Shown here in pieces: positions 10,846 through 46,362 of a DNA stretch of 53,433 nt; the first letter of the stretch is position 1, and each line of letters starts with the position of its first letter. The DNA is from Gammaproteobacteria bacterium. GTDB lineage: Bacteria; Pseudomonadota; Gammaproteobacteria; Steroidobacterales; Steroidobacteraceae. Below the pieces are notes generated by a model. That model had not been told where the DNA came from and did not search any database. It worked only from the letters and a program-made list of their open reading frames with translations. The DNA lies in the NCBI GenBank assembly GCA_028293805.1, contig JAQGOC010000141.1, positions 1-53,433 of the forward strand. Direction: 5' to 3'. A program made the position numbers and the translations under genes.

Positions 10846-11691
10846 TCATCTGTCCCCGATGAAACCGCGGATCTGCTTGACCGCGTAGTCCACCTTCAAA
10901 TCGAAGAACTTATTGCCCAGCTGCGCAGTTGAGCGGCGGGCGTCACCCGTTATGCCGTTGTGCGGGCTGTTGGCGTCGATTTGCGCCTCGCCGTGGACTA
11001 CCGGGTCGCCCAGCGCCGCCTTCACCAGAGCCTTGCGGACCCAGGTGTTGTCTTTGTCCAAATACATCATTTCCGCCGTGTCCGACACGCCCCCATGCAG
11101 ATCGGGCGGATATCCATGCGCGGCCATGTACGCCTCGATCGCGTCGTTCGCAGCCGAGTAGACCTGGTCGCAGTAGTAGACGTGAATACCCTGGGAGGAA
11201 TACTTGTCGTTCAGCTTTCTGGCGACCTCTTCGTAGACTTTCGGTTGGCCTCCACCGTGATCGCCCATCACGATCACATTCTTGAAGCCATCGACGATAG
11301 ATTGCTCGGCAATGCGCTCGAGTAGCGCAGCGAGCAAGTCATTGGTGATACCGATGGTGCCCGGCAATTCTGCACTGGCGTTATTTGGCGTGAACGGCAA
11401 TACCGGCATGAAGATGGCGTTGCCGAGCTTCTCCGCTATTGCTGCGACCGTGGCATGAGCCATCAGATTGTGGCCGCCGTTCGCGTTTTGCGGACCGCGC
11501 TGCTCGACGCCGCCCGTGTATATGAGAGCCGTGGTTTTGCCCGCAGCCAGCGCTTCCTTCACTTCGACCCACGTCATCTTTTCAAACTCGACGAGGTGTC
11601 CTCTGGCGCCGCTGCCAGCGATGACTGGCGCCGCCGCCCATGCGCCGACCATGATCATTGCCACTATCGAGGTGGCGGATATTTTGCGCAT
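10846..11691 (-). CDS. Exported creatininase family protein
   Basis: A 281-residue protein of the creatininase (creatinine amidohydrolase) fold with an N-terminal signal peptide (MRKISATSIVAMIMVGAWAAAPVIAG), so it acts in the periplasm or outside. Family landmarks are GGVEQRGPQNANGGHN (residues about 60-75), VMGDHGGGQ and GGVSDTAEMMYL. Classical creatininase has Glu-x-His and Asp metal ligands here; this protein keeps Glu63 but has Arg65, and His74 where Asp is usual. It may bind metal differently or use another cyclic amide. The start at 11691 has GGAGAA upstream. It is divergent from the two amidohydrolases. Confidence 0.82.
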   Translation of the reverse strand: MRKISATSIVAMIMVGAWAAAPVIAGSGARGHLVEFEKMTWVEVKEALAAGKTTALIYTGGVEQRGPQNANGGHNLMAHATVAAIAEKLGNAIFMPVLPFTPNNASAELPGTIGITNDLLAALLERIAEQSIVDGFKNVIVMGDHGGGQPKVYEEVARKLNDKYSSQGIHVYYCDQVYSAANDAIEAYMAAHGYPPDLHGGVSDTAEMMYLDKDNTWVRKALVKAALGDPVVHGEAQIDANSPHNGITGDARRSTAQLGNKFFDLKVDYAVKQIRGFIGDR

Positions 11692-12024
11692 GCTCTGTTC
11701 TCCGCGTGTCGTTCGATCGAGCCGGAGCGGGATACTACAGTCCGGCAGCGAGCGAAAGAAAGGCCGGAAAGCCGGCAGCTGGAGCCGGCAGGCACGGTCA
11801 TGGGCTGCAACAGTGCGGCTCCGAGAGCGCAGTCCCGCCGGAAATGTCCCAGGCAAGGCGGACCGGACTGCGAGCCCGCAATTAATCGCGGACAGCGAGT
11901 CGCAAATATACAGTCTGCCAAGCCCACCGACGACGCAGCGGACGCGGCGGGGGGCCAGACCAACAGCACACCGCTACTGACGGAGTGTTAAGCTCGCTCG
12001 TCCTGCACACACGAGAATTCGTTC
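11692..12024. other. Divergent intergenic region, creatininase/amidohydrolase
   Basis: A 333-bp spacer that should hold both divergent promoters. I see no gene and no clear palindrome. A GAGAA element about 9 bases before 12025 may serve as a ribosome-binding site. Confidence 0.35.
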
Positions 12025-25898: not shown

Positions 25899-27500
25899 TC
25901 ACGCAAATTCGTCAGCAGAAATCTCGAGGATGATCGCCTGCCTCCGGGCACCGAAGTCTCGCAGCGCGGCCCCGAGCGCGTCGCGGGAAGTGATCCTTCG
26001 ATACGTCAGCCCGTACGCCTGCGCCACGTGCGCAAAATTCGGCGGCTTGACGTCAACGCCCGCGGGCTCTATCCCGGCTGAGATCATGGAGGTACGGATC
26101 TCGCCGTACCCCTGATTGTTCCAGATGATGACCGCATTCCAGCCGCCGAGGTCGGCGAGCGCCGCGAGCTCGCTCATTGAAAATTGCAAGCCACCGTCTC
26201 CGACCAGACACACTACCGGCCTGTCCGGGTCGGCCAAGCTGGCACCGGTCGATGCGGGAAGCGCATAACCGAGCGTGCCGTAACCCGTTGCTGAATTGAA
26301 CCAACGACCCGGAGAATCGACATTGAAGCCGAGGTTTCCGGCGTAGACGAGCTGGGTCGAGTCACCCACCAGCACGGCGGTCGGGAGAGCGGCCCGAATG
26401 ACCTCGAGAGTGTCGATGTGCTCTCGAAGTGAGGGCGAGAATTGCGTGATGGCTTCGAGTGCTGCTCTGCGTGTCTCCGCGGACCGTGCGGCGCCATTGC
26501 CTGGGCGAGCGGGCTTGAGGTCGAGCGATTTCAGCTGCCTGAGGGTTGCTTTGGCATCGCCGCAGAGGCCGATGAGCGGCTTAGCTCCACGGGAGAGCTG
26601 CTCTTCGTCGATATCGATCCGAATCAACTGAGCTGGGGTCGGGAAATCGGCGCGCAGGTCGATGGAGTAGTCCGTCGGTCCGATCTCCGTACCTATTGCG
26701 AGCACGACGTCCGCGTCCGCAATCAGCGCCCGCACCGGCGAAAGCATCGGGCTCATCGGTACCGCCAAGCGATGACCGTGCGGTAGAATTCCGCGCGCAT
26801 TAGCCGTCATGACCACCGGTGCATCGAGTTCTTCGGCCAACCTGCGCAGTTCAGCCGCGGCCGAGATGGCGCCTCCTCCAGCGAGCAGGACGGGACGACG
26901 CGCCGAGCGGAGTATCGCCGCAGCCGAAGCCAAATCAGCTGCGCGTGGGCGTGGTACTGAGTGCACTACTTCTGGGAGCGGCAGTCCTGTCGCATCCGCC
27001 GCAAGCACATCGAGCGGTATTTCTATGTACACCGGGCGCGGGCGGGCGGAGGCAAACCGGGAGAATGCCTTACCGAGCGCTACGGGAAGCTCCGCCGGGT
27101 GCCGAATCGAGAAGCTCTCGCCAGCGACCCCGGCGGCAAGTGCGCACTGATCGCGCAGCTCGTGCAAAAAGCCGCACCCCCTGCCCGACTCAGTGGTTCG
27201 ATTCTGGCTGGAGATCACGAGCAGCGGAATCGAGTCGCCATAGGCCTGACCCATGGCGGTGGCGATGTTGGTGAGGCCGGGACCGGTAATCGTGAAACAG
27301 ACTCCCGGCTGGCCGCTCACGCGGGCATAGCCGTCCGCCATGAAGCCCAGGCCCTGTTCGTGGCGGCCACTGATGTGCCTGATGGGGCCCTGCGCGAGAC
27401 CCCGGTACAGCTCCAGATTGTGCACACCCGGGATGCCGAACACATGGCGTACGCCCTGCGCTTGCAAAGCCTCGACGAGGTAGAGCCCCAACTTCTTCAT
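25899..27500 (-). CDS. aruI: TPP-dependent decarboxylase, 2-ketoarginine decarboxylase (AruI)-like
   Basis: A 533-residue thiamine diphosphate enzyme of the acetolactate synthase fold. The cofactor-activating Glu48 lies in SGRHEQGLGFMADGYAR. The TPP/Mg motif begins GDGGLQFSMSEL and ends in WNNQGYGEI. Early text (HVFGIPGVHNLELYRGL, PGVCFTITGPGLTNIATAMG) closely resembles AruI-type 5-guanidino-2-oxopentanoate decarboxylases as I recall them. That enzyme turns 2-ketoarginine into 4-guanidinobutyraldehyde. Other 2-oxo acid decarboxylases of the family remain possible. The ATG at 27500 gives the normal N-terminus; the frame is open further upstream but overlaps the MFS gene. An aldehyde dehydrogenase follows 30 bp downstream. 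Confidence 0.8.
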   Translation of the reverse strand: MKKLGLYLVEALQAQGVRHVFGIPGVHNLELYRGLAQGPIRHISGRHEQGLGFMADGYARVSGQPGVCFTITGPGLTNIATAMGQAYGDSIPLLVISSQNRTTESGRGCGFLHELRDQCALAAGVAGESFSIRHPAELPVALGKAFSRFASARPRPVYIEIPLDVLAADATGLPLPEVVHSVPRPRAADLASAAAILRSARRPVLLAGGGAISAAAELRRLAEELDAPVVMTANARGILPHGHRLAVPMSPMLSPVRALIADADVVLAIGTEIGPTDYSIDLRADFPTPAQLIRIDIDEEQLSRGAKPLIGLCGDAKATLRQLKSLDLKPARPGNGAARSAETRRAALEAITQFSPSLREHIDTLEVIRAALPTAVLVGDSTQLVYAGNLGFNVDSPGRWFNSATGYGTLGYALPASTGASLADPDRPVVCLVGDGGLQFSMSELAALADLGGWNAVIIWNNQGYGEIRTSMISAGIEPAGVDVKPPNFAHVAQAYGLTYRRITSRDALGAALRDFGARRQAIILEISADEFA

Positions 27501-27513
27501 GTTCGTACCTGCT

Positions 27514-28818
27514 TCAAACGGTAACCGAGCTGCGAACCGCCGCAGCGTCTCGGGACCAATCCAACGGCTCGATCCGCGGCAGCATCCAGAGCCAGCCGAC
27601 CAGGCCGAGCACGTTGAGCGCGCCAGCGAGCACGAAGGCGCTCGAAAAGGTGCCCGTGGCATCGAGCAGCATGCCGGTGATTGCAGGAGCAAACACCCCC
27701 GCAAGATTTCCGCAGGCATTCTGCACACCCACCCAGCGGCCCGCCGCCAGCGGGCCGGCGATGATTTGCGGGATTGCATAAGTCCCCGGCGATGAGACGC
27801 CCACCGCGAGTTGGAATAGGCACAGGCATGCAATGCTGCCTTTCACGGGCAATACGACCATGCCGACCATTGCGATCATGGAAGCGATGTGGGCGAATGC
27901 CATGATGGATTTGTAGAAGCCGTTCGAGGACCGTCCGGAACGCGTCCATGCGGCGACTGCCCAACCGGCAGCCAACGCGCTCGTGGCGTTGATCAGGTAA
28001 GCGATGCCGGCCACGTACGCCATTGCCTGCATGGAGAATCCACGCTCCCTCACGAGGTACTCAGGCAGCCATGCGAGTATGAAATAGAAATTGTAATTAC
28101 TGGCAAAGTGTCCCAGAGAGGCACCCCATAAGCCAGGCTGGCGCAGGATGCGCGCGAAAGAGGGCTTGTCCTCCTCGGCCGCCTTCCCCGCCGTTGCGAT
28201 AGCGGGGGCTCGATCCAGGCCTCCCGCGGCGAGCGCCTTCGTGGGTTGGAGCAGCCGCGCGATGGGCCAGACCCAAAGCAGGGAAATGGCACCAAATACC
28301 AGGAACACCGCCCGCCATCCATAAACCGGCATCAGGACGCCACCGAGCACTGTGCCGATTGAGGGTCCCGCCAGATAGCTGAAGCCTAATACCCCGTTGG
28401 CGAAGTCGATCTGAGACAGTCGCAGGCCGCGGGCAAACAGCAACGACGCGCAGGGAAAGCCAGCACTCTCACCGAAACCCAGCAACAGTCTCAGCAGCAG
28501 CAACGACCAGAAACCGCTGGCGAATCCGGTCAGCAACGTTGCAACCGACCAGATGGCGATACCCGCTGCCAGCACACGGTTCGGGCCGTAGCGCTCCGCG
28601 AGCCACCCAGCCGGTATCATGGCGGCCACGTAACTGTAGTAGAAGGCCGAGAGCAGAAAGCCGAGCTGAGTTGAAGACAGCCCCAGCTCGTCGTGTATCA
28701 GCGGCACCGCCGTCGCCAGATTTCCGCGATCGATATAGTTGATCAGCAACGCAACCGACACGAACAGAACCAAACGTGCAGGCGTTGCAGGTCCGCGCAC
28801 GTGAGCCGAATCCGTCAT
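27514..28818 (-). CDS. MFS transporter (ACS-type anion:cation symporter)
   Basis: A 434-residue major facilitator with about 12 hydrophobic segments. The N-terminal NYIDRGNLATAVPLIHDEL is the hallmark of the anion:cation symporter (hexuronate/glucarate/phthalate) group, and the RYGPNRVLAAGIAIWS loop matches the MFS signature between helices 2 and 3. Members import carboxylates with protons. A RBS (AGGGGG) precedes the ATG at 28818. It lies 13 bp upstream of the decarboxylase gene, so it is probably the first gene of the MFS-decarboxylase-aldehyde dehydrogenase-oxidoreductase operon and may import the starting substrate. Confidence 0.9.
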   Translation of the reverse strand: MTDSAHVRGPATPARLVLFVSVALLINYIDRGNLATAVPLIHDELGLSSTQLGFLLSAFYYSYVAAMIPAGWLAERYGPNRVLAAGIAIWSVATLLTGFASGFWSLLLLRLLLGFGESAGFPCASLLFARGLRLSQIDFANGVLGFSYLAGPSIGTVLGGVLMPVYGWRAVFLVFGAISLLWVWPIARLLQPTKALAAGGLDRAPAIATAGKAAEEDKPSFARILRQPGLWGASLGHFASNYNFYFILAWLPEYLVRERGFSMQAMAYVAGIAYLINATSALAAGWAVAAWTRSGRSSNGFYKSIMAFAHIASMIAMVGMVVLPVKGSIACLCLFQLAVGVSSPGTYAIPQIIAGPLAAGRWVGVQNACGNLAGVFAPAITGMLLDATGTFSSAFVLAGALNVLGLVGWLWMLPRIEPLDWSRDAAAVRSSVTV

Positions 28819-34132: not shown

Positions 34133-34432
34133 GTGGATGAGCTGCCCCGCAGAGTTCTTCTCCAGCGCGTCTTGCAATTCGCCGCGGCGCTCGCGATCGT
34201 CCCCCGCGTGGTCGGGACCGCCCGGGCAGCGGATTCCTGCGTCGATCCCACTTCCGAATCGCTGCGCGCCTCGCTCCACTACGCCAGCGTGTCCCCGAAA
34301 GCCGACGAGACCTGCGGTGGGTGCGGATTCTTCAGCCGCGATGGCAGCAAGCCGGCCTGTGGCAGCTGCCAGATCATGAGCGGGCCGGTGGATGAGAAGG
34401 GGCATTGCGACTCCTGGGCCGCGAAGAGCTGA
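34133..34432 (+). CDS. High-potential iron-sulfur protein (HiPIP)
   Basis: A small periplasmic electron carrier of 99 residues with a 4Fe-4S cluster. The cluster cysteines fit the HiPIP pattern: CGGC, then GSCQIMSGPV and GHCDSW. Two additional cysteines (DSC and PAC) are present. The N-terminus carries a twin-arginine stretch (PRRVLLQRVLQFAAAL), consistent with Tat export of the folded protein. I chose the GTG at 34133 because AGGAG lies about 9 bases upstream. A cytochrome c' gene follows 59 bp downstream. HiPIPs donate electrons to heme proteins, so a link with the nearby cytochromes is plausible. Confidence 0.85.
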   Translation: MDELPRRVLLQRVLQFAAALAIVPRVVGTARAADSCVDPTSESLRASLHYASVSPKADETCGGCGFFSRDGSKPACGSCQIMSGPVDEKGHCDSWAAKS

Positions 34433-34491: not shown

Positions 34492-34929
34492 TTGAGACGA
34501 ACAGCGAAAGGGCTGGCCCTCGCGGCATTGCTGGCCGCATCCGCTATCGCAGCCGCAGACGATCAGGATGCAATCGATTACCGCAGACACGTCATGAAGA
34601 CCCTGGGCGAGCAGCTTGCCGCTATCGACATGATCCTCGCCAAGAAGGCTCCTGCTGACAGCTTCGCGGTCCACTTGAAGGTGATTGCCGCCACGGCAAC
34701 GCAGGCAAAGAAGGCGTTTGAGCCCAAGATTCAGGGCGGCAGCTCGAAGCCGGAGGTTTGGTCGAACTGGCCGGACTTCGCCAGGCGCCTCGACGGCCTG
34801 GTGGCCTCGAGTGATGAGCTGGCAAAAGCGGCGAAAGACGCCGGTGCGGCCGCCGTGGGACCCAAGATCAAGTCTACACTCGACTGTGAAAGCTGCCACA
34901 AGGTATACATGCTGCCGCCGAAGCCGTAG
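34492..34929 (+). CDS. Cytochrome c' family protein (paralogue 1)
   Basis: A periplasmic heme protein of about 145 residues with a signal peptide (RRTAKGLALAALLAASAIAAAD). The mature part is an all-helical four-helix bundle with the heme motif CESCHKVY near the C-terminus. The helix pattern (DYRRHVMKTLGEQLAAID, KPEVWSNWPDFARRL) is typical of cytochrome c'. A TTG at 34492 with GAGGAG upstream gives the best start; the frame is open to 34405 within the HiPIP gene. It is clearly paralogous to the gene at 36264-36710. The gene converges with the triheme cytochrome. Confidence 0.85.
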   Translation: MRRTAKGLALAALLAASAIAAADDQDAIDYRRHVMKTLGEQLAAIDMILAKKAPADSFAVHLKVIAATATQAKKAFEPKIQGGSSKPEVWSNWPDFARRLDGLVASSDELAKAAKDAGAAAVGPKIKSTLDCESCHKVYMLPPKP

Positions 34930-35010: not shown

Positions 35011-36249
35011 CTAGCGCAGGCTCCTGACGGCTGCGGGACTGACCGGCCCGGCCTGATTCCCCCAGCTACCCCGCACGAAGTTGCTGACGGCAACTACCTG
35101 GGAATCGTCGAGGACATCTCCATATGCGGACATGGTCTCCCATCCCCCATATGAGACGCCCTTTGCCCTCGACGGCCCGTGGATGATTATGTTGATCAGC
35201 GACGCCGGGTCCTCCCCTTGGACGACTGCGCTGCCCGCCAGCGGCGGTCCGCTAAAAAAGCCGCCGCGGCCCGAAGCGCCGTGGCACTTCTCGCACCGTT
35301 CCTTGTAGATTGACGCGCCGGCTGCCACGAGCTCAGGCGGTACCCGATCACCGGCATACGGCTCTGCCTGCAAGCTCTTCACGTACACGGCCATCGCGTG
35401 CAGGTCGGCAGGCGTGAGCCATTTCAGGCTGTTCACGATCACTTCATTCATGGGCCCGAACGTGCCGGCTCGAGAACTCACACCCGTGCGAAAATATTTC
35501 TCGAGGTCCGCAACGGACCACGAACCGAGCCCGTGCTTCGCGGAGGTCAGGTTTACAGCGAACCACCGGCCCACCTTCCCTCTGCTGAGCTCATCCCGAA
35601 TGACCCCTCCGGTGTACGCCTTGTCCTGTTGTTCCGCGAGAAAGGCATTTCGCGGGGTGTGGCACGCGCCGCAATGTCCTAATCCCTCGACGAGATAGGC
35701 GCCGCGATTCCACTCCGCCGATTTCCCGGGATCGGGAACATATCGCCCCGTCGTGAAGAAGAGGCTATTCCATAAGGCCACGGGCCATCGCATCTTGAAC
35801 CACAGGCCATTCGCGGGGGGCGTGTAACGTTTTGGAGGCAGAGTGCGCAGATACGCGTAAATATCGGCCACGTCGGCGTTGCTGACTTTCGTGAACGACG
35901 TATAGGGAAAGGCAGGAACCAGGTGCGAGCCGTCCCGAGCAATCCCCTCGTGCATTGCTCTTTGCAGATCCCCGACGGTCCACCGTCCAATGCCCGTTTC
36001 CGGCTCCGGCGTGATGTTCGTCGAATATAGGGTACCCAGCGGAGTCTCGAATGCCACTCCTCCCGCGAAGGGCTCACCGCCTGGCCGTGTATGACAGCTC
36101 AGACAATTGCCGGCCGCTGCAAGGTATCTCCCGCGCTCGATGGGTGAGTTGGCTATCGGGGAGGCACTATGATCCTGCGCAAAGCACGTTGCGCTGGCCA
36201 ACAGAAAGACCGTGCCCAGCAACTGACGTATCAGTTTTGCAGCTCCCAC
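35011..36249 (-). CDS. Triheme cytochrome c (dehydrogenase cytochrome subunit-like)
   Basis: A 412-residue exported protein with a signal peptide and three c-type heme motifs: CLSCH, CGACH and CEKCH. Each lies in its own cytochrome c domain (about 35-150, 180-300 and 315-400), with methionines suitable as distal ligands. This is the layout of the cytochrome subunit of membrane-bound alcohol, gluconate and aldose dehydrogenases, which passes electrons to the quinone pool or an oxidase. No flavin or PQQ dehydrogenase subunit is present next to it. The start is a GTG at 36249. It is the last gene of the minus-strand redox run, 14 bp after cytochrome c'. Confidence 0.9.
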   Translation of the reverse strand: MGAAKLIRQLLGTVFLLASATCFAQDHSASPIANSPIERGRYLAAAGNCLSCHTRPGGEPFAGGVAFETPLGTLYSTNITPEPETGIGRWTVGDLQRAMHEGIARDGSHLVPAFPYTSFTKVSNADVADIYAYLRTLPPKRYTPPANGLWFKMRWPVALWNSLFFTTGRYVPDPGKSAEWNRGAYLVEGLGHCGACHTPRNAFLAEQQDKAYTGGVIRDELSRGKVGRWFAVNLTSAKHGLGSWSVADLEKYFRTGVSSRAGTFGPMNEVIVNSLKWLTPADLHAMAVYVKSLQAEPYAGDRVPPELVAAGASIYKERCEKCHGASGRGGFFSGPPLAGSAVVQGEDPASLINIIIHGPSRAKGVSYGGWETMSAYGDVLDDSQVVAVSNFVRGSWGNQAGPVSPAAVRSLR

Positions 36250-36263
36250 CGTAAACGAGCTGC

Positions 36264-36710
36264 CTACTGCTTTGGCTTTTCCTTGCGGTAAGTGTCGTGA
36301 CAGCTCTTGCAGCTGAGCGCATCCACGACATTCGCAAGCCCGGCGTCCTTACCATGCTCGTGTGCCGTCTTGGCCATCTCCGCGGTCATACGTGCGAAGT
36401 CGTTCATCCGCTTGGAGAAGTCCGCCCAGTTCGCCCAGACGTCCGGCTTCGCCTCCCCTCCGGGAACCTTGGACATAAAGGCCTTCAGCGCGGTGGACGC
36501 CGTAAGCGCGATCGCATCGAGATGCGCAATCACATTGTCGTCCGGAACCGACGCGGACAAAATCTGCCCCAACGCCGCGGCCTGCTCATTCAGGGTGTTC
36601 ATGATGTGCTGTCGATAATCAATCACATCCTTGTCGTCGGCATGGGCCGCCGGCAGCAGCGCAAGCAAAGCGAGCGCCGCAACGCACCGCAGTTTGGACG
36701 AAGATCTCAT
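36264..36710 (-). CDS. Cytochrome c' family protein (paralogue 2)
   Basis: A 148-residue exported four-helix heme protein with signal peptide (MRSSSKLRCVAALALLALLPAAHA) and a C-terminal CKSCHDTY motif. It shares with the protein at 34492-34929 the order DYRQHIMNTLNEQAAALGQIL, KPDVWANWADFSKRM and the C-terminal heme site. Cytochromes c' bind NO or handle electrons at a five-coordinate heme. Its ATG overlaps the stop of the VOC gene (ATGA), showing translational coupling. Confidence 0.88.
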   Translation of the reverse strand: MRSSSKLRCVAALALLALLPAAHADDKDVIDYRQHIMNTLNEQAAALGQILSASVPDDNVIAHLDAIALTASTALKAFMSKVPGGEAKPDVWANWADFSKRMNDFARMTAEMAKTAHEHGKDAGLANVVDALSCKSCHDTYRKEKPKQ

Positions 36711-37225
36711 GGCAGGCTCATCAGTTTCCGGCTGGCGATCTGCAAATCATAACCGTCAGGATCCTTGACGTGAAAACTTTCGTCGGTATCCGGCCGCGGG
36801 TCCATGCCACGCCGCCGGAGCTCTTCCGCGACGTATTTCTGGTCCCATGTGTCGATTGTGTACGCAATGTGATCCACGTACGGCTTGCCGTCAGGCTGGC
36901 GCGATTTGCGCGCAATGACGTAGTTGTCCCCAAACTGCAGGTTGCACTGCTTCCCATCGTCACCGCTGACCTGCATGCCGAATAGACCCGCGTAGAAGTC
37001 CCGGGTGCGCGCATAGTCCGCGACACCGTAGGAGATGTGATTGACAGCTATTGCCTTGAACGGGCTGCGTCGAGACGGCACTCCGAGAGCCGGCGCGCTT
37101 CCCGCAGCCGCAGCTAGAGCCCCCAGAGTCAGGCCTTGCACGAGCTGGCGCCGGGAGATCTTACCGCGCTCGAACTGGCCGAGCAGCTCGATGACAACCT
37201 TTTCCACTGTGACCGACCCCCTCAA
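36707..37225 (-). CDS. Tat-exported VOC (glyoxalase-like) family protein
   Basis: A 172-residue protein. The N-terminal about 45 residues carry a Tat signal (KISRRQLVQGLTLGALAAAAG). The rest is a single vicinal-oxygen-chelate domain: NHISYGVADYARTRDFYAGLFGMQVSGD, a central YVDHIAYTID and an ending HVKDPDGYDLQI. Conserved His/Glu/Asp positions could bind a metal. VOC proteins are mostly cytoplasmic, so a Tat signal is unusual. Export of a folded, probably metal-loaded protein fits the periplasmic redox cluster. It overlaps the cytochrome c' gene by 4 bp. The reaction is unknown. Confidence 0.82.
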   Translation of the reverse strand: MRGSVTVEKVVIELLGQFERGKISRRQLVQGLTLGALAAAAGSAPALGVPSRRSPFKAIAVNHISYGVADYARTRDFYAGLFGMQVSGDDGKQCNLQFGDNYVIARKSRQPDGKPYVDHIAYTIDTWDQKYVAEELRRRGMDPRPDTDESFHVKDPDGYDLQIASRKLMSLP

Positions 37226-37299
37226 CGCTCGTGACCTGGCCGCGGTCGTGTTGCAACTCGCCTTTTCTCAAGGCATCGCTGAGCGCACGCGCTCTGGAG

Positions 37300-38508
37300 C
37301 TATTTTTCTCCCGGACCGGTTGTCGCGGCGACCTTTGCACCATTCTCAGCAGTCTCTTCCTCGACAGATCGGGGGAAAGGAGGACCTGCATAGGGAACCA
37401 CCGCAGGTTGCAGCGACATCGAGGCAACCTGATTTTTCGAAGCGGGGACGATGACGATTTGCGTGAACTTCGCCAGCAACGCCGATGAGATCGCCGAATT
37501 GGCGCCGGTCTTCGCATCTGGGTAGCCATCGGCCAGCCGCCGCAGCGCTTTATAGATGGACGGCGCGGAGGACTGACCATAGCTTTGATGATGGGTCGAA
37601 TAAGACCTCATCATTTGCGAATACCAGGTCTCGATGTCCGTATATCCGCCGAGCATTCCCTCAGCTCCCGTCGGCGACAGCTTGAGCTTGAATCGCGCGG
37701 CGTGCATGAACTCGTCGGTGGGAATGTAGAACACGGCCCAGGGATAGACGAGGTCCGCCGGATCGGTGGTCAGCACACCGTCGGTGATCCTGCCATGCAG
37801 CTTCTGAACGAACTTGGCACCCCACCGGGTGTCGATACGCTGCGAGGCGCCGGGGATCGCATTTTTCCCCGTCGAGTCGAGAAGAATGGGGTCCCGCCCG
37901 CGGTACACCATGACCTGCACATCATTGTCGTTCACCAGGCTTTCCACGCCTGATAGCTCGATGATGATCCGATTGTAGACGTCCTTGGTCACCTCATCGT
38001 TGTCGAAGCCTTGAATGGCGCCTTCCGGAGGCCGGTAGTTGCGGATGCAGCCCAACACGCGGTAAAGCTGATTGTCGATGCCCTTCTCGCCGTCCGGGCC
38101 GGCGAAGTCGTTCGGGCCCAGCTTGCCGTCGAGATTCAAACCGTATGCCGTCGGTCCGCCCGCTTCATGAAACTCGAATGGCTCCGGCGCCGTACTGGGA
38201 TACCAGCCATCGATCTCGCGCCGCAACTGGGTGTCGAGCAGCGTCCGGGTCGTGCCGTTTTCCGGAAAGAGCTTCTTGAAGTGTTCCCGATTGCCTTCGT
38301 TGAAACCCGCCGGACATTCTGTCTTACCGTCCGCGCTTTCGTAGACAGCCCAGTGGAGATCCGTCAGGACGTATGCAACGGTGCCGTCTTTGGGAGCGGT
38401 CGCATCAGCAGCTGACGCGCTATCCGATCCAATGGCGAGCAGCGTCAGAACGGCCAACGCGCCTGTAAGCGCCGACTTGCGCAAGGTTCCGTCTGCTTCA
38501 GATTGCAT
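37300..38508 (-). CDS. Exported protein of unknown function in the redox cluster
   Basis: A protein of about 402 residues that I do not recognise. It has a signal peptide (LRKSALTGALAVLTLLAIGSDSASA) and no transmembrane segment or heme motif after it. Notable text includes VAYVLTDLHWAVYESADGKTEC, the paired cysteines CPAGF and VLGCIRNYRPP, and LVYPWAVFYIPTDEFMHAARF. The start at 38508 has GGAGAGG at good spacing, and a GTG directly precedes it. It lies 24 bp after the secreted repeat gene and 74 bp before the VOC gene on the same strand. Context alone suggests a role in the extracytoplasmic redox system. Confidence 0.75.
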   Translation of the reverse strand: MQSEADGTLRKSALTGALAVLTLLAIGSDSASAADATAPKDGTVAYVLTDLHWAVYESADGKTECPAGFNEGNREHFKKLFPENGTTRTLLDTQLRREIDGWYPSTAPEPFEFHEAGGPTAYGLNLDGKLGPNDFAGPDGEKGIDNQLYRVLGCIRNYRPPEGAIQGFDNDEVTKDVYNRIIIELSGVESLVNDNDVQVMVYRGRDPILLDSTGKNAIPGASQRIDTRWGAKFVQKLHGRITDGVLTTDPADLVYPWAVFYIPTDEFMHAARFKLKLSPTGAEGMLGGYTDIETWYSQMMRSYSTHHQSYGQSSAPSIYKALRRLADGYPDAKTGANSAISSALLAKFTQIVIVPASKNQVASMSLQPAVVPYAGPPFPRSVEEETAENGAKVAATTGPGEK

Positions 38509-38535
38509 CACTTGTCCTCTCCAGCTCGCAGCCGA

Positions 38536-39903
38536 TCAGCCCGCGCGTCTGTTGAAATCGTCTCGCACCCAATACGCCTTGAATCCCTCGCGCTCGCCCC
38601 TGAACTCCCCGATCCCGTCGGCATTGGTATCACCTGCTCGCTGGTCCCCGGCATAGGTGTAAACCGGCCGGCCTCTGTAAGCCCAGACATGCAGCGCATC
38701 CGGCTGACCACGAGCCGCCAGATGGCCGCTCTTCGGATCGATGTCGATCACACTCCAGGAGCGATTGCTGCTCCTGGCACCCTTTGGCGCCAAAACGTAT
38801 GGAAATGTATGCAGACACCTTTCGGGATCACCGGCTCCGCACATGGCAAGCCGGTAGGCCTGAGTCTCGTCCGGGTGATCGCAACTCAACTGATCTATCG
38901 CATCGTCGCCGCACGAGTACATATAGACCGTTTTGCCGTTTGCATCCGCGACAACCTGTCCCGCCGTCGTGTTTTGCACGGTAAATCCGGCGGGAATTGG
39001 CGGCGCGAGCTGGGTGAAAACATTGTGCCAGCCCGGCTCATCGCTTCCCTGGAAGCTGTGAGAGTATGAATCCAGGGCGAAACGATACAGCGGCCGTTTC
39101 CGAAACGCCCACTGCCTCACTCCCGGCGAGCGCTCGAAAATGGCCCAATCCCCGTGCGGGTGCGCCGACTGCGGAGCGAGCATGGGTACCCAGGTCTTGG
39201 CGCACTCGGAATCGCAATTCGACTTATTGGGCCCATCCGCATCGGAGGCATATATGGAAAAATCTCGACCGTTCAGCAGTAACCGGCCAACACGCGTCGT
39301 GGCTACATTGAATCCCGGGGGCAGGTCGGGCGGTGGCTGCACTGGCACTCGCTCGGCGGGATCGTCGCCCTTGTGATCATATGTATCAGCACCCAGGACA
39401 TCGCCAGGCCGTTTGTCGAGAGCCGACGTATAGAGCGCAAAGCCGTCGAATGCCCACTGCTTCGCTCCGTCCTTTCTAGTGATTATCGTCCACTTGCCAA
39501 TCGGCTTCGCATTTGCAGGCGCGAGCGCTGGAGGCCACGCCTGCGTGCAGCTCGGCCGCCGATCCAGCTCAGGAAGAGTGAATCCCCCCGGGTAAGGACT
39601 CATGTAGCCGGCGTTTGTCGTGCTCTTCGCAGCGGTGCAGTTCGACTCGCCCTTGGGGTCGCCGGTATTGCCCACGCGCAAATTCTTGAATGGCCAACGA
39701 TATAACGTACGGCCATTCGCGTCGGCGAATACCGGACCATCCAACTCGGTCGCCTCGACACGGAAGTGTGGCGGCATGGGGACGTGGACGTAATCCTCAG
39801 TCTGGCGGGCGCCGAACGCCCTGCAGTCCGGGGTTACGGTCAAGAAGAAGAAACAGGATCCTGCCAGCATCGCAATCCTGATCACACCTACCCCTCGCTT
39901 CAT
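38536..39903 (-). CDS. Secreted repeat protein (COG4315-like)
   Basis: A protein of about 455 residues with a signal peptide. It contains three copies of a secreted repeat of about 100-130 residues. Each copy starts with a predicted beta segment (GPVFADANGRTLYRW, GRLLLNGRDFSIYAS, GQVVADANGKTVYMYS). Cysteine pairs and a tryptophan motif follow (QWAFDGFALYTSAL, QWAFRKRPLYRFAL, HVWAYRGRPVYTYAGD). These repeats resemble the Lipoprotein_15/COG4315 family, whose function is unknown. The preferred start is 39903, where a signal peptide begins; the frame is open to 39939. It lies between DUF1552 and an unknown exported protein. Confidence 0.8.
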   Translation of the reverse strand: MKRGVGVIRIAMLAGSCFFFLTVTPDCRAFGARQTEDYVHVPMPPHFRVEATELDGPVFADANGRTLYRWPFKNLRVGNTGDPKGESNCTAAKSTTNAGYMSPYPGGFTLPELDRRPSCTQAWPPALAPANAKPIGKWTIITRKDGAKQWAFDGFALYTSALDKRPGDVLGADTYDHKGDDPAERVPVQPPPDLPPGFNVATTRVGRLLLNGRDFSIYASDADGPNKSNCDSECAKTWVPMLAPQSAHPHGDWAIFERSPGVRQWAFRKRPLYRFALDSYSHSFQGSDEPGWHNVFTQLAPPIPAGFTVQNTTAGQVVADANGKTVYMYSCGDDAIDQLSCDHPDETQAYRLAMCGAGDPERCLHTFPYVLAPKGARSSNRSWSVIDIDPKSGHLAARGQPDALHVWAYRGRPVYTYAGDQRAGDTNADGIGEFRGEREGFKAYWVRDDFNRRAG

Positions 39904-39971
39904 CCGGCACGCTCGCTGTTGTTCCGAAGGCTGTCCCATCGAGTTTGAAGTCGCACGGCGGTCAGAGCCGC

Positions 39972-41327
39972 TCAGGACAAAATCTCTCCCAGCTCCTTGG
40001 ACGTGTTGTTACTCTTGGTGCCCCAGGACTGCGTGTCCACGCCCATGACCTTCATCGCCGTATAGCCCAGTCGCGCTGCAGGCCCGGCAGCGCCGTCAAT
40101 GTGCAGACCCGTCTTGATGCGGCCGCCGGCACGCCCGGCAGTAAACATGGGAATGCCGTCCAGAGAGTGGATCCGGGCCCAGGCGGTATCCGTGGTGGCA
40201 TAGATCAGAACGTTGTCCAGCAACGTTCCATCGCCTTCCTTGACCTTGGTAAAGGCCTCGACAAAGTATGCCCATGACTCCATCGAGCGCCGCAGGAACC
40301 ACGACGCCGTAGGCTGATAGCCCAGCGCTTGATCAACAGGCTCTTCGTGCGTACAGGTATGGTGCGGCTTCTCGTAGCCAGCCTTGATAGTCGAGGCAAA
40401 CGCAGCGGAATACGCCATGTTGAACACTCGGGTCTGATCGCACGCCACTGCCATGACCATGAGATCGGTCAGCATCCGATGACGTAGTGCGACCACCTCC
40501 GAATCAACCGTGGTCCTGGGATCCTCCGTCGGTGCCGTGACGGCGTGACAGGCCGCGATGGGCTCAGGCTTGGTGAGCTGATGATCGAACTGCCGCTCGA
40601 GATCGCGCAGGTCGGTGTAGTACTGCTCGAGCCGCGCCCGATCTTCGGCGCCGACCATCTTCGCAAGCTCTTTTGTCTGGTCCAGCACTCCCGACAGGAC
40701 GCTCTTGCGCGCCATGATGCGCGGATTCGGGGTGAACGAGCTGGCGTTGGGATCCTGATAGTCCGTACCGAACAGCTGCTTATAGAAGTTCAGGGGCGAG
40801 GCTTCCGCGGCATTGATCGAGTTGGCGTTCTCGTAGCTGAAGCTGGTGCGTACATCGCCATTCGCAGTAGCCGTAACCGTCTGGAAGCGCGTCGTTCGGC
40901 CGATGACACGGGAGATCGTGACATCGATCGTCTCGCCCGGACGGTCCTCGGAGCCAATCGGCGCCGAGCCCGTGCGCAGGATGACCCAACCTGAGTAGTG
41001 GCAGAGGTTGGGTGCGGAATCCCGCATTGCGTTGAAGTTCGTATAGACGTTCACATGCTGGCGCACGGCAGCCAGTGCGGCCAGCTCTTCGGGAAGCTCG
41101 TAGTCCGCCCCCACCTTGGCCGGAACAAACACCTTGGAGTTCATTCCCAGCCCCCAGGACCAGGTGCCAAAGCGCATCGGCAGCGACGCGCCGTTGGCCA
41201 TCGCCGTGCCGTTCTCATTCAGGAAGCAATTGAGGAGGGGCAGACCCAGCGTCACCACGCCACCATTCAACATGCCCCGCAAGAATCGGCGCCTGCCGAG
41301 GCTTTCGAGGCGGCTCAATGTCTTCAC
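39972..41327 (-). CDS. DUF1552 family protein, Tat-exported
   Basis: A 451-residue protein with a Tat signal (LGRRRFLRGMLNGGVVTLGL). The mature part matches DUF1552 as I know it: PMRFGTWSWGLGMNSKVFVP near the start, CHYSGWVILRTGSAP, and a C-terminal IYATTDTAWARIHSLDGIPMFTAG, related to the alkaline phosphatase/sulfatase-like DUF1501 group. The GTG at 41327 overlaps the stop of the DUF1592 gene (GTGA). DUF1592 and DUF1552 genes are commonly adjacent, mostly in planctomycetes, myxobacteria and some gammaproteobacteria. The biochemical role is unknown. Confidence 0.87.
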   Translation of the reverse strand: MKTLSRLESLGRRRFLRGMLNGGVVTLGLPLLNCFLNENGTAMANGASLPMRFGTWSWGLGMNSKVFVPAKVGADYELPEELAALAAVRQHVNVYTNFNAMRDSAPNLCHYSGWVILRTGSAPIGSEDRPGETIDVTISRVIGRTTRFQTVTATANGDVRTSFSYENANSINAAEASPLNFYKQLFGTDYQDPNASSFTPNPRIMARKSVLSGVLDQTKELAKMVGAEDRARLEQYYTDLRDLERQFDHQLTKPEPIAACHAVTAPTEDPRTTVDSEVVALRHRMLTDLMVMAVACDQTRVFNMAYSAAFASTIKAGYEKPHHTCTHEEPVDQALGYQPTASWFLRRSMESWAYFVEAFTKVKEGDGTLLDNVLIYATTDTAWARIHSLDGIPMFTAGRAGGRIKTGLHIDGAAGPAARLGYTAMKVMGVDTQSWGTKSNNTSKELGEILS

Positions 41328-43117
41328 TTTTGTGCTCCAGTCAGTCTGTCGGATGCCGCGACCCTATTGCTGGCCACGGGAGGCGCGGCAGATGGCACGC
41401 TAGCGGCCTTCGTAGGCGCTGGCGCAGCGGCCGCATCGGTGACACGGGAAAATGCGTTGCTCAGAGCGATGGTTCGCAGCAGATCCGGCAACCGGTATTG
41501 CCCCGCGGCAAATTGACTGTTCAGGTACGGCAGCACGCTAGTGTCATTCGCCTTGATAGGGCCGCCGGTTCCGTACGTGTACACGCGTTTGACCAGGCAG
41601 GCAGGCAAACCCGGGCTGTCGTGCAACGCTTGGGTCAACCCAACGGGGTCGGTAAAGCTCTTCCCATCGAGATTGCCGCTGGCATCGATCGGGGCCCCTC
41701 TCTCGGTATCCCGGTACTGACCTGCGCCGTCGAAATTCTCCAAGGCCAGTCCGATCGGATCGGTAATCTTGTGACACCCGGCGCAAACAGGATTCGCACG
41801 GTGAGCGGCCAGGCGCTCGCGCGCAGTGCGGAGCGTGGACTTCGGATCTTCGATCAGAGAAAAGTCGACGTTCGGCGGTGGACGAGGAACCTGTTGACAC
41901 AGGAGCAGCTCTCGCAGTGCTTTACCGCGCAGCGTCGGCGAGCTTCGCCCGGGATGCGCATGCGAGGCGAGAAAGGCGATCTGGGTGAGCAGGCCCACTC
42001 TCTGGCTATCCTCGGGGATCTGATAGGACGTCCATCCCGGGGGCGTCGGCACGCCGTACAGCGTGGCAAGCGAGGGAGACATGAATGTATGTCGTGTCGT
42101 GAACAGATCCCGATAGTCGAGCTTTCTGACGAGCAGGTGATCGACAATGGTGCGCAGGGTCTGTTCGCGCGCATCCTGGACAGTGTCGCCGACGAACGCA
42201 GGATAAATGCCGGGATCCTTCGCAAGCACGGCAAAATCATCAAAGCCCAGCATATCGTCGAAGAAGGCGCGCACCCCGGTTTCCAGTCGTGGGCTGCGCA
42301 GCATGTAGTCAACAGCCCGCGAGCGCCCCTGTAGCGTCTGCAAGTCCCCGTGCTCCGCCATCTTCAACAATTCGTCATCGGGCGCGGCATTCCAGAGGAA
42401 AAAGCTGAGCCGGCTCGCCAGTGAGAACGAGTCGAGGCGGCGGTAGCCGGGTCTCGTCGGATCCGGCTCCGATCGATCCATGATGAACAACAGGTCGGGT
42501 GAGACGAGAATTCCCTCGAGAGCGACGGCCAGCCCCGCGTAGAAGTCCTTGAGGCGATTGGCCGCATCCCCCGCCTGGGCGATGAGATTCGCCTGCTGGG
42601 CCTTGCTCATCGGCCGCCGATAGAGCACCCGGCCAACGGAGGTGAGAAACGTGGTGGCGCAGCCTTTGTCGGCGGCATCCTCGTGCCGCGGCGTACACGG
42701 AATCAGGAAATTCCGGTGCGCGGGGCTGACAACCATCTCTGCCAGTGCGGCGGCAGTGCGCTGAAACTCCTGCATCTGTCCGGAGGTGATGCCCGCGGCA
42801 GCTGCCCCGATCTCCAGAAGTCCATCGGTTCGCCGGAACGGCGCGAAGTGCGCGGACACACTGATGTCGGGGCCGAACACATAGGCCAGGGTATTGAAGT
42901 ATTGTTCTTGGGAAATGAGACGAACACGGGCCGGCGAGGTTGCCTCTAGCGATTCGCTGGCACCGGCAGCGGGCCGGTTTGCGCCCTGCGAGTCGCTCGC
43001 TGGCGCCTCCGTACCGTGAGCTATGGCTAGGCCAAAGGATAGTGTCAGCCCGAGCAGCAGTGCGCCAACTACCGATGGAAGTCTTCGCGGAAATGAATGG
43101 GAAAGCGCTTTTGTCAT
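41324..43117 (-). CDS. DUF1592 family protein with c-type heme motif
   Basis: A 597-residue exported protein with the DUF1587/1592/1588/1585 domain series: an N-terminal signal peptide, RVRLISQEQYFNTLAYVFG near residue 65, FSLASRLSFFLWNAAPDDELL, RVGLLTQIAFLASHAHPGRSSPTLRG and CAGCHKITDPIGLALENFD. The CAGCH sequence is a c-type heme-binding motif. A C-terminal Ala/Pro-rich tail follows. The start at 43117 has AAGGTGG upstream. It appears to be the first gene of the seven-gene minus-strand run down to 35011. The family is uncharacterised as far as I know. Confidence 0.88.
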   Translation of the reverse strand: MTKALSHSFPRRLPSVVGALLLGLTLSFGLAIAHGTEAPASDSQGANRPAAGASESLEATSPARVRLISQEQYFNTLAYVFGPDISVSAHFAPFRRTDGLLEIGAAAAGITSGQMQEFQRTAAALAEMVVSPAHRNFLIPCTPRHEDAADKGCATTFLTSVGRVLYRRPMSKAQQANLIAQAGDAANRLKDFYAGLAVALEGILVSPDLLFIMDRSEPDPTRPGYRRLDSFSLASRLSFFLWNAAPDDELLKMAEHGDLQTLQGRSRAVDYMLRSPRLETGVRAFFDDMLGFDDFAVLAKDPGIYPAFVGDTVQDAREQTLRTIVDHLLVRKLDYRDLFTTRHTFMSPSLATLYGVPTPPGWTSYQIPEDSQRVGLLTQIAFLASHAHPGRSSPTLRGKALRELLLCQQVPRPPPNVDFSLIEDPKSTLRTARERLAAHRANPVCAGCHKITDPIGLALENFDGAGQYRDTERGAPIDASGNLDGKSFTDPVGLTQALHDSPGLPACLVKRVYTYGTGGPIKANDTSVLPYLNSQFAAGQYRLPDLLRTIALSNAFSRVTDAAAAPAPTKAASVPSAAPPVASNRVAASDRLTGAQK

Positions 43118-45341: not shown

Positions 45342-46334
45342 TCAGGCCGGAGCGGACCTTCTCTTGCAGCCGGGAAAGCTGCACAACATCTCGAACAGGA
45401 GATTTGCGGCGAGCAACGAGGTGTTGCCGGAAACGTCATAGGGAGGCGATACCTCCACGAGATCCGCGCCGACCAGATTCGTTCCGAATGCGCCGCGAAT
45501 CACTTCCAACCCCTGCGTGGCCGTCAGTCCACCTACTTCCGGCGTGCCTGTTCCGGGCGCAACCGACGGATCCAGTCCGTCTATGTCGAAGCTCAGGTAG
45601 GTAGGAACCTGTGATCCGATCCGTGCCCGCACCTCCTGCATCAGCGGGTCGAGTGACCTATACCAGCACTCTTCAGCCTGTACCACTACGGCTCCCCGTT
45701 GGCGCGTCCAGTCAAAATCCTCGGCACTGTACCCGGTGCCGCGCAATCCGATCTGATACATCCGCTTCGCATCGACCAGACCTTCCTCGATTGCGCGACG
45801 GAAGATGGTGCCATGCGCCACTTTCTCGCCGAACATCTCGTCGTTTACATCAGCGTGAGCGTCCACATGAATCAGGGCCATCGGTCCATGTCTGCGGTGC
45901 AATGCGCGCAGGATCGGCAGAGTAATGGTGTGATCCCCGCCCACTGACAACGGCTTGACGCCATTGTGCAGGACGGCATCATAGAACTGTTCGATGATGC
46001 CGATCGAGGCGGCGAGATTGTAGGTGTTTAGAGGAACATCGCCGAGATCGGCCACCTGAAAGCTTTCGAACGGTGCCGCTCGCGTTGCCATGCCGTACGG
46101 ACGGATGAGCGCCGATTCACTCCTGATTTGTCGAGGACCAAAGCGGGTCCCCGCGCGATTGCTGGTGCCGATATCCAGAGGAACGCCAATGATGCCGATC
46201 CCAACTCCGCGCGATGTGTGCTGGACCGGCAGGCGGAACATCGTCGCGGTACCGGCAAACCGCGGCATGACATTGCCGCCGAGCGGCTCGTTGAAGGCGC
46301 GCTCGGCAGACTCATCCGACTGTGCAATCGCCAT
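45342..46334 (-). CDS. gbuA: Guanidinobutyrase-like ureohydrolase
   Basis: A 330-residue Mn-dependent ureohydrolase of the arginase/agmatinase fold. Metal-ligand motifs are GGDHT, HVDAHADVND and SFDIDGLDP. The sequence closely resembles Pseudomonas guanidinobutyrase as I recall it (NEPLGGNVMPRFAGTATM, IRPYGMATRAAPFESFQVAD, EECWYRSLDPLM). That enzyme splits 4-guanidinobutyrate to GABA and urea. Agmatinase or guanidinopropionase remain possible. The ATG at 46334 has GGAG upstream; the frame also opens from a TTG at 46346. It would supply GABA to the gabT enzyme of this window. It is transcribed alone, away from the other amine genes. Confidence 0.85.
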   Translation of the reverse strand: MAIAQSDESAERAFNEPLGGNVMPRFAGTATMFRLPVQHTSRGVGIGIIGVPLDIGTSNRAGTRFGPRQIRSESALIRPYGMATRAAPFESFQVADLGDVPLNTYNLAASIGIIEQFYDAVLHNGVKPLSVGGDHTITLPILRALHRRHGPMALIHVDAHADVNDEMFGEKVAHGTIFRRAIEEGLVDAKRMYQIGLRGTGYSAEDFDWTRQRGAVVVQAEECWYRSLDPLMQEVRARIGSQVPTYLSFDIDGLDPSVAPGTGTPEVGGLTATQGLEVIRGAFGTNLVGADLVEVSPPYDVSGNTSLLAANLLFEMLCSFPGCKRRSAPA

Positions 46335-46362
46335 TTGATTCTCCAATCGTCATTGATTCTCC
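46332..46362 (-). repeat. Duplicated ribosome site/start segment before gbuA-like gene
   Basis: On the minus strand GGAGAATCAA occurs twice, each copy followed by an ATG (ATG at 46353 and ATG at 46334). The upstream ATG opens a 13-residue frame (MTIGESNGDCTVG) that ends inside the start of the gbuA-like gene. It may be a tandem duplication of the translation start, or a leader peptide coupled to the gene. Confidence 0.45.

What the first reader, a model, noticed from the sequence alone, without database searches (positions are those of the whole stretch)
35011..43117. Seven-gene run of exported proteins, many of them redox proteins, built around DUF1592/DUF1552
Seven minus-strand genes follow with gaps of 14-74 bp or 4-bp overlaps: DUF1592 (heme motif), DUF1552 (Tat), secreted repeat, unknown exported protein, Tat-exported VOC, cytochrome c' and triheme cytochrome c. 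All carry signal sequences (seen). Three contain c-type heme motifs. Facing them is a HiPIP and another cytochrome c'. I know of no described pathway with this set. A periplasmic oxidation system feeding electrons through HiPIP and the cytochromes is my inference.
Basis: partly seen in the sequence, partly recalled or inferred. Interest (0 to 1): 0.75.

Follow-up and report, generated by a model that had tools for sequence, protein, structure and literature searches.

The report
Conserved four-gene exported redox module
The seven-gene run is real, and its first four genes form a conserved exported redox unit in several groups of bacteria that may oxidise small nitrogen compounds outside the cytoplasm and pass the electrons to a three-haem cytochrome; I found no published description of it.

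Summary
Observation confirmed: seven minus-strand genes, gaps -4 to 74 bp, export-type N-termini, three with CxxCH. The conserved core is four genes: a one-haem DUF1592 protein, a Tat-type DUF1552 protein, a PF03640 protein and an exported protein without Pfam or NCBIfam match ("unk"). A genome search with unk alone gave 77 loci with 96 unk genes; 64 have all three partners within 5.5 kb on one strand (66 after a re-check), in three rotated orders. The core differs from ordinary DUF1592-DUF1552 pairs: one haem not two, HxxTHEE not HxxSHH. A triheme cytochrome c accompanies it in 30 of 81 loci; its closest solved relatives are cytochrome subunits of glucose, alcohol, fructose and aldehyde dehydrogenases, but no GMC-flavin, PQQ or molybdenum subunit was recognised beside it in the window. 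HiPIP and cytochromes c' recur in some loci, so the "facing" window genes belong to the same set. Best reading: a periplasmic dehydrogenase whose catalytic part is this core. Neighbouring creatininases, 2-oxo-acid enzymes and aminotransferases suggest amino-acid or guanidino substrates (weaker). Catalysis is inferred, not shown.

The parts
41324..43117 (-). DUF1592-type protein (PSD5, PSD4, PSCyt3, PSD2), one CAGCH haem site, export-type N-terminus
   Evidence: one CxxCH in 67 of 68 core DUF1592 genes, the other being cut at a contig end
39972..41327 (-). DUF1552 protein, RRRFL twin-arginine start, motif HHTCTHEE; predicted alkaline-phosphatase/sulfatase-like fold
38536..39939 (-). exported Lipoprotein_15 (PF03640) repeat protein, SCO0930-like below cut-off
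37300..38511 (-). unk: 403-aa exported protein without Pfam/NCBIfam family; fourth core gene
36707..37225 (-). VOC (glyoxalase-fold) protein with RRQLV start; occasional accessory
36264..36710 (-). cytochrome c' (CKSCH), accessory
35011..36249 (-). triheme cytochrome c like the cytochrome subunit of membrane-bound dehydrogenases; presumed electron acceptor
34492..34929 (+). second cytochrome c' (CESCH), same set, flipped in this genome
34133..34432 (+). HiPIP with RRVLL start, same set, flipped in this genome
44773..45210 (-). CHRD protein with export-type N-terminus; homologues beside the core or the triheme c in L035, L051, L052, L054, L058
43380..44600 (-). Rieske oxygenase alpha subunit, GbcA-like (below cut-off); neighbour, probably part of a separate MFS-AruI-Rieske set
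25899..27833 (-). TPP enzyme, 5-guanidino-2-oxopentanoate decarboxylase model NF005712 over cut-off (AruI-like); catabolic neighbour
45342..46346 (-). agmatinase/guanidinobutyrase-type ureohydrolase (TIGR01230 over cut-off); catabolic neighbour
10846..11856 (-). creatininase-family protein, one of two found in this genome, about 25 kb from the core

Best explanation
The run encodes an exported dehydrogenase system. SHOWN by comparison: a four-protein core that keeps together (one-haem DUF1592, HxxTHEE-type DUF1552, PF03640 protein, unk), in 30 of 81 loci with a triheme cytochrome c of the kind that serves membrane-bound dehydrogenases, and in some loci with HiPIP and cytochromes c'. INFERRED: the core replaces the flavo- or quinoprotein catalytic subunit that normally partners such a triheme cytochrome; the DUF1552 protein, perhaps with unk, binds and oxidises the substrate in the periplasm, the DUF1592 haem takes the electrons, and the triheme c (here backed by cytochromes c' and HiPIP) carries them to the respiratory chain. 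INFERRED, WEAKER: substrates are small nitrogen compounds, mainly amino acids or guanidino or amide derivatives, converted to 2-oxo acids; in this locus perhaps arginine.
For: Core recurrence: 64 of 96 unk genes found by the unk search alone, 68 of 100 with the window and three copies found otherwise, have all three partners; rotated orders; median gaps 6, -4 and -1 bp; distance correlations r 0.905-0.947 with 0 of 999 permutations as high. Triheme c: PDB relatives are glucose, alcohol, fructose and aldehyde dehydrogenase cytochrome subunits, best E 6.7e-82; it directly precedes DUF1592 on the same strand in 16 loci and its distances track the core in 24 loci, r 0.877-0.903, 0 of 999. Second haem site missing in 67 of 67 uncut core DUF1592 proteins but present in 11 of 11 complete DUF1592 proteins outside the core type, as if the external cytochrome stands in for it. 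Export-type N-termini. Context: creatininase family in 21 of 81 loci and 6 of 8 genomic copies on core contigs in three genomes; AruI and ureohydrolase beside the core in the window and in L029; 2-oxoisovalerate dehydrogenase parts; a branched-chain transaminase over cut-off directly downstream in L042.
Against: No catalytic activity, substrate or cofactor is demonstrated. DUF1552 has a hydrolase-superfamily fold match, not an oxidoreductase one. Triheme c was not found in 51 of 81 loci, though many end early. In L059 a Tat-type flavin amine oxidase and a di-haem protein stand directly upstream of the triheme c, so there a flavoprotein partner is possible. L15 and unk without DUF1592/DUF1552 occur with long flanks (L078, L125). 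Distance correlations are inflated by shared species descent. AruI is not exclusive to core loci: 26 of 58 genus genomes have one over cut-off, and in G002, without the core, an MFS-AruI-Rieske set exists that is 63-76% identical to the window's, so the arginine neighbours may be independent. The genome also has a transaminase 51% identical to the one beside AruI in G441.
Confidence: 0.45

Rival explanations
1. The core is a hydrolase complex: the DUF1552 protein works like an alkaline-phosphatase-superfamily hydrolase, the haem protein only stabilises or senses, and the triheme c is a neighbour.
For: Fold search of the DUF1552 model: 8 matches at E<=0.001, seven choline sulfatase chains and one LtaS; creatininases, amidases and M20 hydrolases are among the commoner neighbours.
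Against: TM-scores only 0.31-0.39; no sulfatase CxPxR motif in the aligned nucleophile region, an invariant His stands there. The haem site is kept in 67 of 67 uncut proteins and the triheme c tracks the core.
Confidence: 0.2
2. Carbohydrate oxidation, as proposed for planctomycete-type cytochromes (PSCyt) in Verrucomicrobia.
For: He et al. 2017 (PMC5615132, passages read) link PSCyt genes with carbohydrate-binding modules and sulfatases; the triheme relatives serve sugar and alcohol dehydrogenases; some hosts carry agar-related species names.
Against: No glycoside hydrolase is among the 25 commonest neighbour families shown in either scan (204 neighbours); creatininase, 2-oxo-acid and aminotransferase families are there instead. 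Only 25 of 90 and 25 of 109 families were shown.
Confidence: 0.12
3. A nitric-oxide or redox-stress system: cytochromes c' bind NO (recalled), HiPIP and the others shuttle electrons.
For: Two cytochromes c' and a HiPIP at this locus.
Against: Cytochrome c' has strong matches in only 6 of 81 loci; TonB receptors (17 loci) and catabolic genes point to nutrient use.
Confidence: 0.08
4. A core of unknown biochemistry with loosely attached genes: the four genes are a unit, but the cytochromes, VOC and catabolic genes are chance or lineage-specific neighbours.
For: VOC in 3 other loci plus the window; HiPIP in 9 of 81; triheme c not found in 51 of 81; MFS-AruI-Rieske exists without the core.
Against: Triheme c directly precedes DUF1592 in 16 loci and covaries with the core; creatininase clustering (binomial 5e-7, contigs chosen post hoc).
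Confidence: 0.15

Closest known systems
PSCyt3-type DUF1592 + DUF1552 gene pairs of Planctomycetes/Verrucomicrobia (He et al. 2017, PMC5615132)
   Same: Same domain families, adjacent genes, haem CxxCH in the PSCyt3 domain. The paper says PSCyt3 genes usually sit next to an unknown family and that nothing is known of function (passages read); that this family is DUF1552 is my inference.
   Different: One haem not two, HxxTHEE not HxxSHH, plus two further genes that usually accompany it and, in many loci, a separate triheme c.
Three-component membrane-bound dehydrogenases with a triheme cytochrome c (8hdd, 8gy2, 7w2j, 8gy3)
   Same: Homologous triheme cytochrome subunit over almost its whole length.
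   Different: Their flavo-, quino- or molybdo-catalytic subunit (recalled) is not recognised beside it in the window; the four-gene core stands there instead.
Arginine transaminase pathway (AruH, AruI, KauB, GbuA; pathway names recalled)
   Same: Window and L029 carry AruI over cut-off and a ureohydrolase over cut-off; the window also has an ALDH most like PuuC, below cut-off.
   Different: No transaminase directly beside AruI in the window or L029, while G441, G027, G010:C9 and G444:C162 have one.
SCO0930-family lipoproteins (PF03640)
   Same: L15 matches PF03640 and, below cut-off, NF040526.
   Different: 91.9 bits against a cut-off of 275; part of a four-gene unit.

Membership tests
PSCyt3-type DUF1592-DUF1552 pair | PSD5-PSD4-PSCyt3-PSD2 domains in one haem protein | tested here: met
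   PF07637, PF07631, PF07627, PF07624 over cut-off; CAGCH
PSCyt3-type DUF1592-DUF1552 pair | adjacent DUF1552 gene | tested here: met
   (4-bp overlap)
PSCyt3-type DUF1592-DUF1552 pair | second N-terminal haem (as in the comparison proteins) | tested here: not met
   1 CxxCH in 67 of 68 core proteins, none in one cut at a contig end (no length filter); 2 in 11 of 11 complete comparison proteins (a twelfth row, L034, is a cut copy of one of them)
PSCyt3-type DUF1592-DUF1552 pair | HxxSHH signature of DUF1552 | tested here: not met
   THEE in 65 and SHEE in 5 of 71 core hits, the last an 81-aa fragment without the region; HxxSHH in 13 of 13 comparison proteins
Triheme-cytochrome membrane-bound dehydrogenase | triheme cytochrome c subunit | tested here: met
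   8hdd_B E 6.7e-82, residues 15-412
Triheme-cytochrome membrane-bound dehydrogenase | GMC-flavin, PQQ or molybdenum catalytic subunit beside it | tested here: not met
   none in the window proteins given to Pfam (about 21.8-46.3 kb). Elsewhere incomplete: none among the families shown, but L059 has a flavin amine oxidase upstream. Unscanned genes and genes elsewhere in the genome are not excluded
Triheme-cytochrome membrane-bound dehydrogenase | substrate oxidation coupled to the triheme c | not testable with these tools
   needs purified proteins or mutants
Alkaline phosphatase / sulfatase superfamily (DUF1552 protein) | overall fold | tested here: inconclusive
   Foldseek E 1.2e-5, prob 1.00, but TM 0.31-0.39 and rmsd above 10 A in the 8 rows at E<=0.001
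Alkaline phosphatase / sulfatase superfamily (DUF1552 protein) | sulfatase CxPxR formylglycine motif (recalled) | tested here: not met
   the region I take as equivalent, by sequence comparison only, reads NLCHYSGW with invariant H110
Arginine transaminase pathway | AruI 2-ketoarginine decarboxylase | tested here: met
   NF005712 688.4 bits, cut-off 500
Arginine transaminase pathway | AruH transaminase beside AruI | tested here: not met
   no transaminase among the proteins scanned around 21.8-46.3 kb; one at 874-2034 with 32% identity to the G441 enzyme

The most novel reading that the evidence does not exclude
A new class of periplasmic dehydrogenase: a four-protein catalytic unit (one-haem DUF1592, HxxTHEE-type DUF1552, PF03640, unk) without a recognised flavin, PQQ or molybdenum subunit, plugged into a classical triheme cytochrome c and multiplied in paralogues for different amino-acid or guanidino substrates, deaminating them to 2-oxo acids outside the cytoplasm.
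Probability: 0.28. Interest if true: 0.82.

Novelty: new variant of a known kind. Interest (0 to 1): 0.6.

Why it matters
DUF1592/DUF1552 proteins can be present in many copies in one genome (14 DUF1552 matches in G055) and the literature I could search gives them no function. A compact four-gene version tied to a well-understood dehydrogenase cytochrome and to recognisable catabolic genes, present in named cultured species, makes that question testable. If it is a dehydrogenase, it adds a new catalytic solution to periplasmic oxidation and a route for amino acid or guanidino compound use.

Tried and rejected
Seven genes as the unit: rejected, because VOC, cytochromes c' and HiPIP are present in only some loci. 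I first took the VOC for a one-off insertion; one search found VOC relatives (50-53% identical) in L095, L099 and L100, and it is now listed as an occasional accessory.

PDB sequence relatives of the four core families: none useful; unk had one hit at E 0.77 (troponin C), the other three none at E<=1. Fold of unk: model pLDDT 88, but 0 matches at E<=0.001 in the PDB; the weak LbpB/YceI-like rows are not evidence.

A function from the literature: DUF1592/DUF1552 occur in 4 papers of the library. One search (PSCyt, PSD1, DUF1501, DUF1553, DUF1549, HXXSHH) found 537 papers, 25 listed, mostly about unrelated proteins called PSD1; (planctomycete-specific cytochrome, COG4315, SCO0930, secreted repeat of unknown, Lipoprotein_15, DUF1588) found 16. 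I read matching passages only of PMC5615132, PMC6004670 and PMC7789669; none gives a function. The rest I saw as search listings. 'No published description found' rests on these searches of open-access PMC only.

Arginine as the proven substrate: rejected as proven, because of G002, 26 of 58 genus genomes with AruI over cut-off and transaminases elsewhere in the genome. Promoter and terminator scan: nothing above the shuffled expectation.

Full report
OBSERVATION. The seven minus-strand genes are present at 35011-43117 with gaps of -4, 32, 24, 74, -4 and 14 bp. The 403-aa protein, here 'unk', has no Pfam and no NCBIfam match. CxxCH counts are 1 (DUF1592), 1 (cytochrome c') and 3 (last gene). 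By a hydropathy heuristic six of seven have a clearly hydrophobic N-terminal stretch, the VOC a weaker one with a twin-arginine pair; the DUF1552 protein also has a twin-arginine pair. The heuristic is not specific (an agmatinase-type neighbour also passes). HiPIP (34133-34432) and a second cytochrome c' (34492-34929) lie opposite. The window is contig C262 of a draft genome of 5.77 Mb in 392 contigs, 89% complete with 4.9% contamination.

PARALOGUES. The same genome has a second copy on C307 (L028): DUF1592, DUF1552, PF03640, unk, two cytochromes c', HiPIP and a triheme c of which only the C-terminal part (about 200 aa) matches, all on one strand. Genome G010 of the genus has two further full cores. 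So the window's plus-strand HiPIP and cytochrome c' belong to the same set and lie flipped here.

RECURRENCE. I searched the genome collection with an alignment of four unk proteins only, so its neighbours were not part of the query: 149 stretches matched, 110 were confirmed, the best 80 were kept as 79 loci. Two of them (L057, L089) repeat L029 and L030 and were dropped, leaving 77 loci with 96 unk genes; 64 of 96 have all three partners within 5.5 kb on the same strand. With the window and L028-L030, which were found through DUF1552 and so are biased, it is 68 of 100 in 81 loci; 25 of the 100 are incomplete with an end of the stretch within 4.5 kb, and 7 are incomplete with at least 4.5 kb on both sides. 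One search shows that my gene caller missed the DUF1552 of L102 and the L15 of L088, so 66 of 96 (70 of 100) is the better number. L074 looks like an inverted duplicate within one contig, so its two unk are probably one gene. Exceptions exist: L078 has L15 and unk divergent without the other two, and L125 (G010, outside the 100) has TonB-receptor-like gene, L15 and unk alone. Orders are DUF1592-DUF1552-L15-unk (52 strict cases in 49 loci), unk-DUF1592-DUF1552-L15 (L108, L109, L112, L113) and L15-unk-DUF1592-DUF1552 (L099, L100, L104). Median gaps are 6, -4 and -1 bp, with a wide range that partly reflects start-codon choice. For 44 full-length canonical sets the pairwise distances of the four proteins correlate at 0.905-0.947, and 0 of 999 permutations reach this; shared species descent contributes. 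Named hosts include Peristeroidobacter agariperforans and soli, Steroidobacter agaridevorans and gossypii and Bradyrhizobium iriomotense; the rest are mostly metagenome-assembled. The module is rare: 1 of 369 class genomes, the window's own, and 3 of 58 genus genomes.

DISTINCT SUBTYPE. DUF1592 proteins of ordinary pairs in this genome (C235) and in G055 (nine of its regions fetched, ten of its 14 DUF1552 matches) have two haem sites (11 of 11 complete proteins; a twelfth row is a cut copy; L126 showed a DUF1552 without a DUF1592 in my ORF calls). Core DUF1592 proteins have one in 67 of 68, the last being cut at a contig end; the longest is 677 aa (one search gave 46 of 46 on a length-filtered set). 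Comparison DUF1552 proteins read HxxSHH (13 of 13); core ones read THEE (65) or SHEE (5) of 71 hits, the last a fragment (58 of 58 in the aligned set). In a FastTree with midpoint rooting the two types fall on opposite sides of the root; a core-type protein from G038 (L031) falls with the core type (support 0.683 for that side, 1.0 for the other). In the earlier motif alignment only 5 of 16 comparison loci gave a usable frame, which is why one search was made with longer stretches.

ACCESSORIES. Profile searches find the triheme c in 30 of 81 loci at E<=1e-90 (plus a weak match in L110), HiPIP in 9 of 81, and strong cytochrome c' matches in 6 of 81 (plus weaker ones in L085 and L030). In 16 loci the triheme c directly precedes DUF1592 (gaps 7-269 bp). 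In 24 loci its distances correlate with those of the core at 0.877-0.903 (0 of 999 permutations). Its solved relatives are glucose dehydrogenase beta (8hdd, E 6.7e-82) and the cytochrome subunits of alcohol, fructose and aldehyde dehydrogenases. In L059 a flavin amine oxidase and a MbnH/MauG-like di-haem protein precede the triheme c, so a flavoprotein partner is possible there. VOC relatives lie beside the core in L095, L099 and L100; CHRD relatives in L035, L051, L052, L054 and L058. TonB receptors are in 17 loci (named by one representative).

STRUCTURE. unk: AlphaFold model, pLDDT 88.1, helices then a beta-rich part, 0 PDB matches at E<=0.001. DUF1552: pLDDT 87.4, 8 matches at E<=0.001, seven choline sulfatase chains and one LtaS, with low TM-scores (0.31-0.39) and large rmsd. 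An invariant His110 stands where I would place the sulfatase cysteine; this placement is by sequence comparison, not by superposition.

CONTEXT. A creatininase-family cluster is in 21 of 81 loci, 19 of them from the unk search (the window's own creatininase lies outside the stretch counted). In G000, G010 and G444 together 6 of 8 creatininase genes lie on contigs with the core, against 5% of their DNA (binomial 5e-7; genome sizes rounded, the choice of contigs post hoc, distances up to about 25 kb). Pfam was run on 204 neighbours within 3 kb: one search listed 237 for 65 loci after I had dropped near-duplicate loci and the window; 27 over 700 aa were dropped, six more left out (one cytochrome c' and five I judged antisense or artefact), and one antisense frame was replaced by the VOC frame. 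Creatininase is the commonest family of the first set (9 of 98) and second in the other (4 of 106, after Response_reg with 6). Others: 2-oxoisovalerate dehydrogenase E1 N-terminal domain 3 of 98, aminotransferase I/II 3 of 98, Amidase 4 of 204, M20 peptidase 4 of 204 and Hydantoinase_B 2 of 106, but two of the M20 and both Hydantoinase_B appear to be the mirrored copies in L074, so three and one independent cases (only the top 25 of 90 and of 109 families are shown, and there was no matched background set). Beside the window's core lie AruI (688.4 bits, cut-off 500), a PuuC-like ALDH (529.4, cut-off 850) and an agmatinase-type ureohydrolase (197.4, cut-off 174.3); L029 has AruI (831.6) and such a ureohydrolase (197.7) too. 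In L042 a branched-chain transaminase over cut-off directly follows unk. In L030 a CstA-family transporter (best NCBIfam row: pyruvate symporter, below cut-off) and an Lrp/AsnC-type regulator are near.

AGAINST THE ARGININE IDEA. AruI over cut-off occurs in 26 of 58 genus genomes. In G002, without the core, MFS, AruI and Rieske oxygenase 63%, 65% and 76% identical to the window's stand together. In G441, G027, G010:C9 and G444:C162 a transaminase stands beside AruI; in G441 and G027 its best NCBIfam row is the arginine-acting PLP enzyme GntC, below cut-off; that it is AruH is recall. The missing transaminase beside AruI in L029 fits a replacement by the core but does not prove it.

CONCLUSION. 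A real, conserved exported four-gene redox core, undescribed as far as my searches reach (the DUF1592/DUF1552 pairing itself is known). That it is a dehydrogenase whose electrons leave through the triheme cytochrome is the best-supported inference (0.45). Nitrogenous substrates are likely but weaker; arginine here is a guess.

Noticed in passing
window 10846-28818: The same contig carries a nitrogen-compound catabolic stretch: creatininase, two amidohydrolases (Xaa-Pro dipeptidase model, far below cut-off), a DAO protein most like L-pipecolate oxidase (below cut-off), tandem Lrp/AsnC-type regulator, GcvT-family protein, PuuR-like regulator, CrtO-like FAD protein, ALDH, AruI-like enzyme and an MFS transporter.
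   Followed up: partly
window 43380-44600 and L155:8467-9678: A GbcA-like Rieske oxygenase (76% identical between the two) sits in one set with AruI and an MFS transporter in a genome without the core; its role is unknown.
   Followed up: partly
L059:1278-4172: A Tat-type flavin amine oxidase and an MbnH/MauG-like di-haem protein (below cut-off) lie directly upstream of triheme c and the core; a possible cofactor-making link or a rival catalytic partner.
   Followed up: no
L030:12152-13156 and L157:4100-5164: Proteins that look alike by eye, with signal-like N-termini (the L030 one has a sub-threshold HpcH/HpaI aldolase match), each lie beside an Lrp/AsnC-like regulator near core loci.
   Followed up: no
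L125:9003-14865: TonB-receptor-like gene, PF03640 protein and unk without DUF1592/DUF1552, so L15-unk may work on its own.
   Followed up: partly
L028:4145-4900: The triheme c of the second copy matches only over its C-terminal 200 aa, so it looks broken or truncated.
   Followed up: no
L074: The locus reads as an inverted duplicate (same gene lengths mirrored, identical match scores), probably an assembly artefact.
   Followed up: no
G055 (L126-L134): One genome of the same order holds 14 DUF1552 matches; of the nine regions looked at, most show two-haem DUF1592-DUF1552 pairs.
   Followed up: partly
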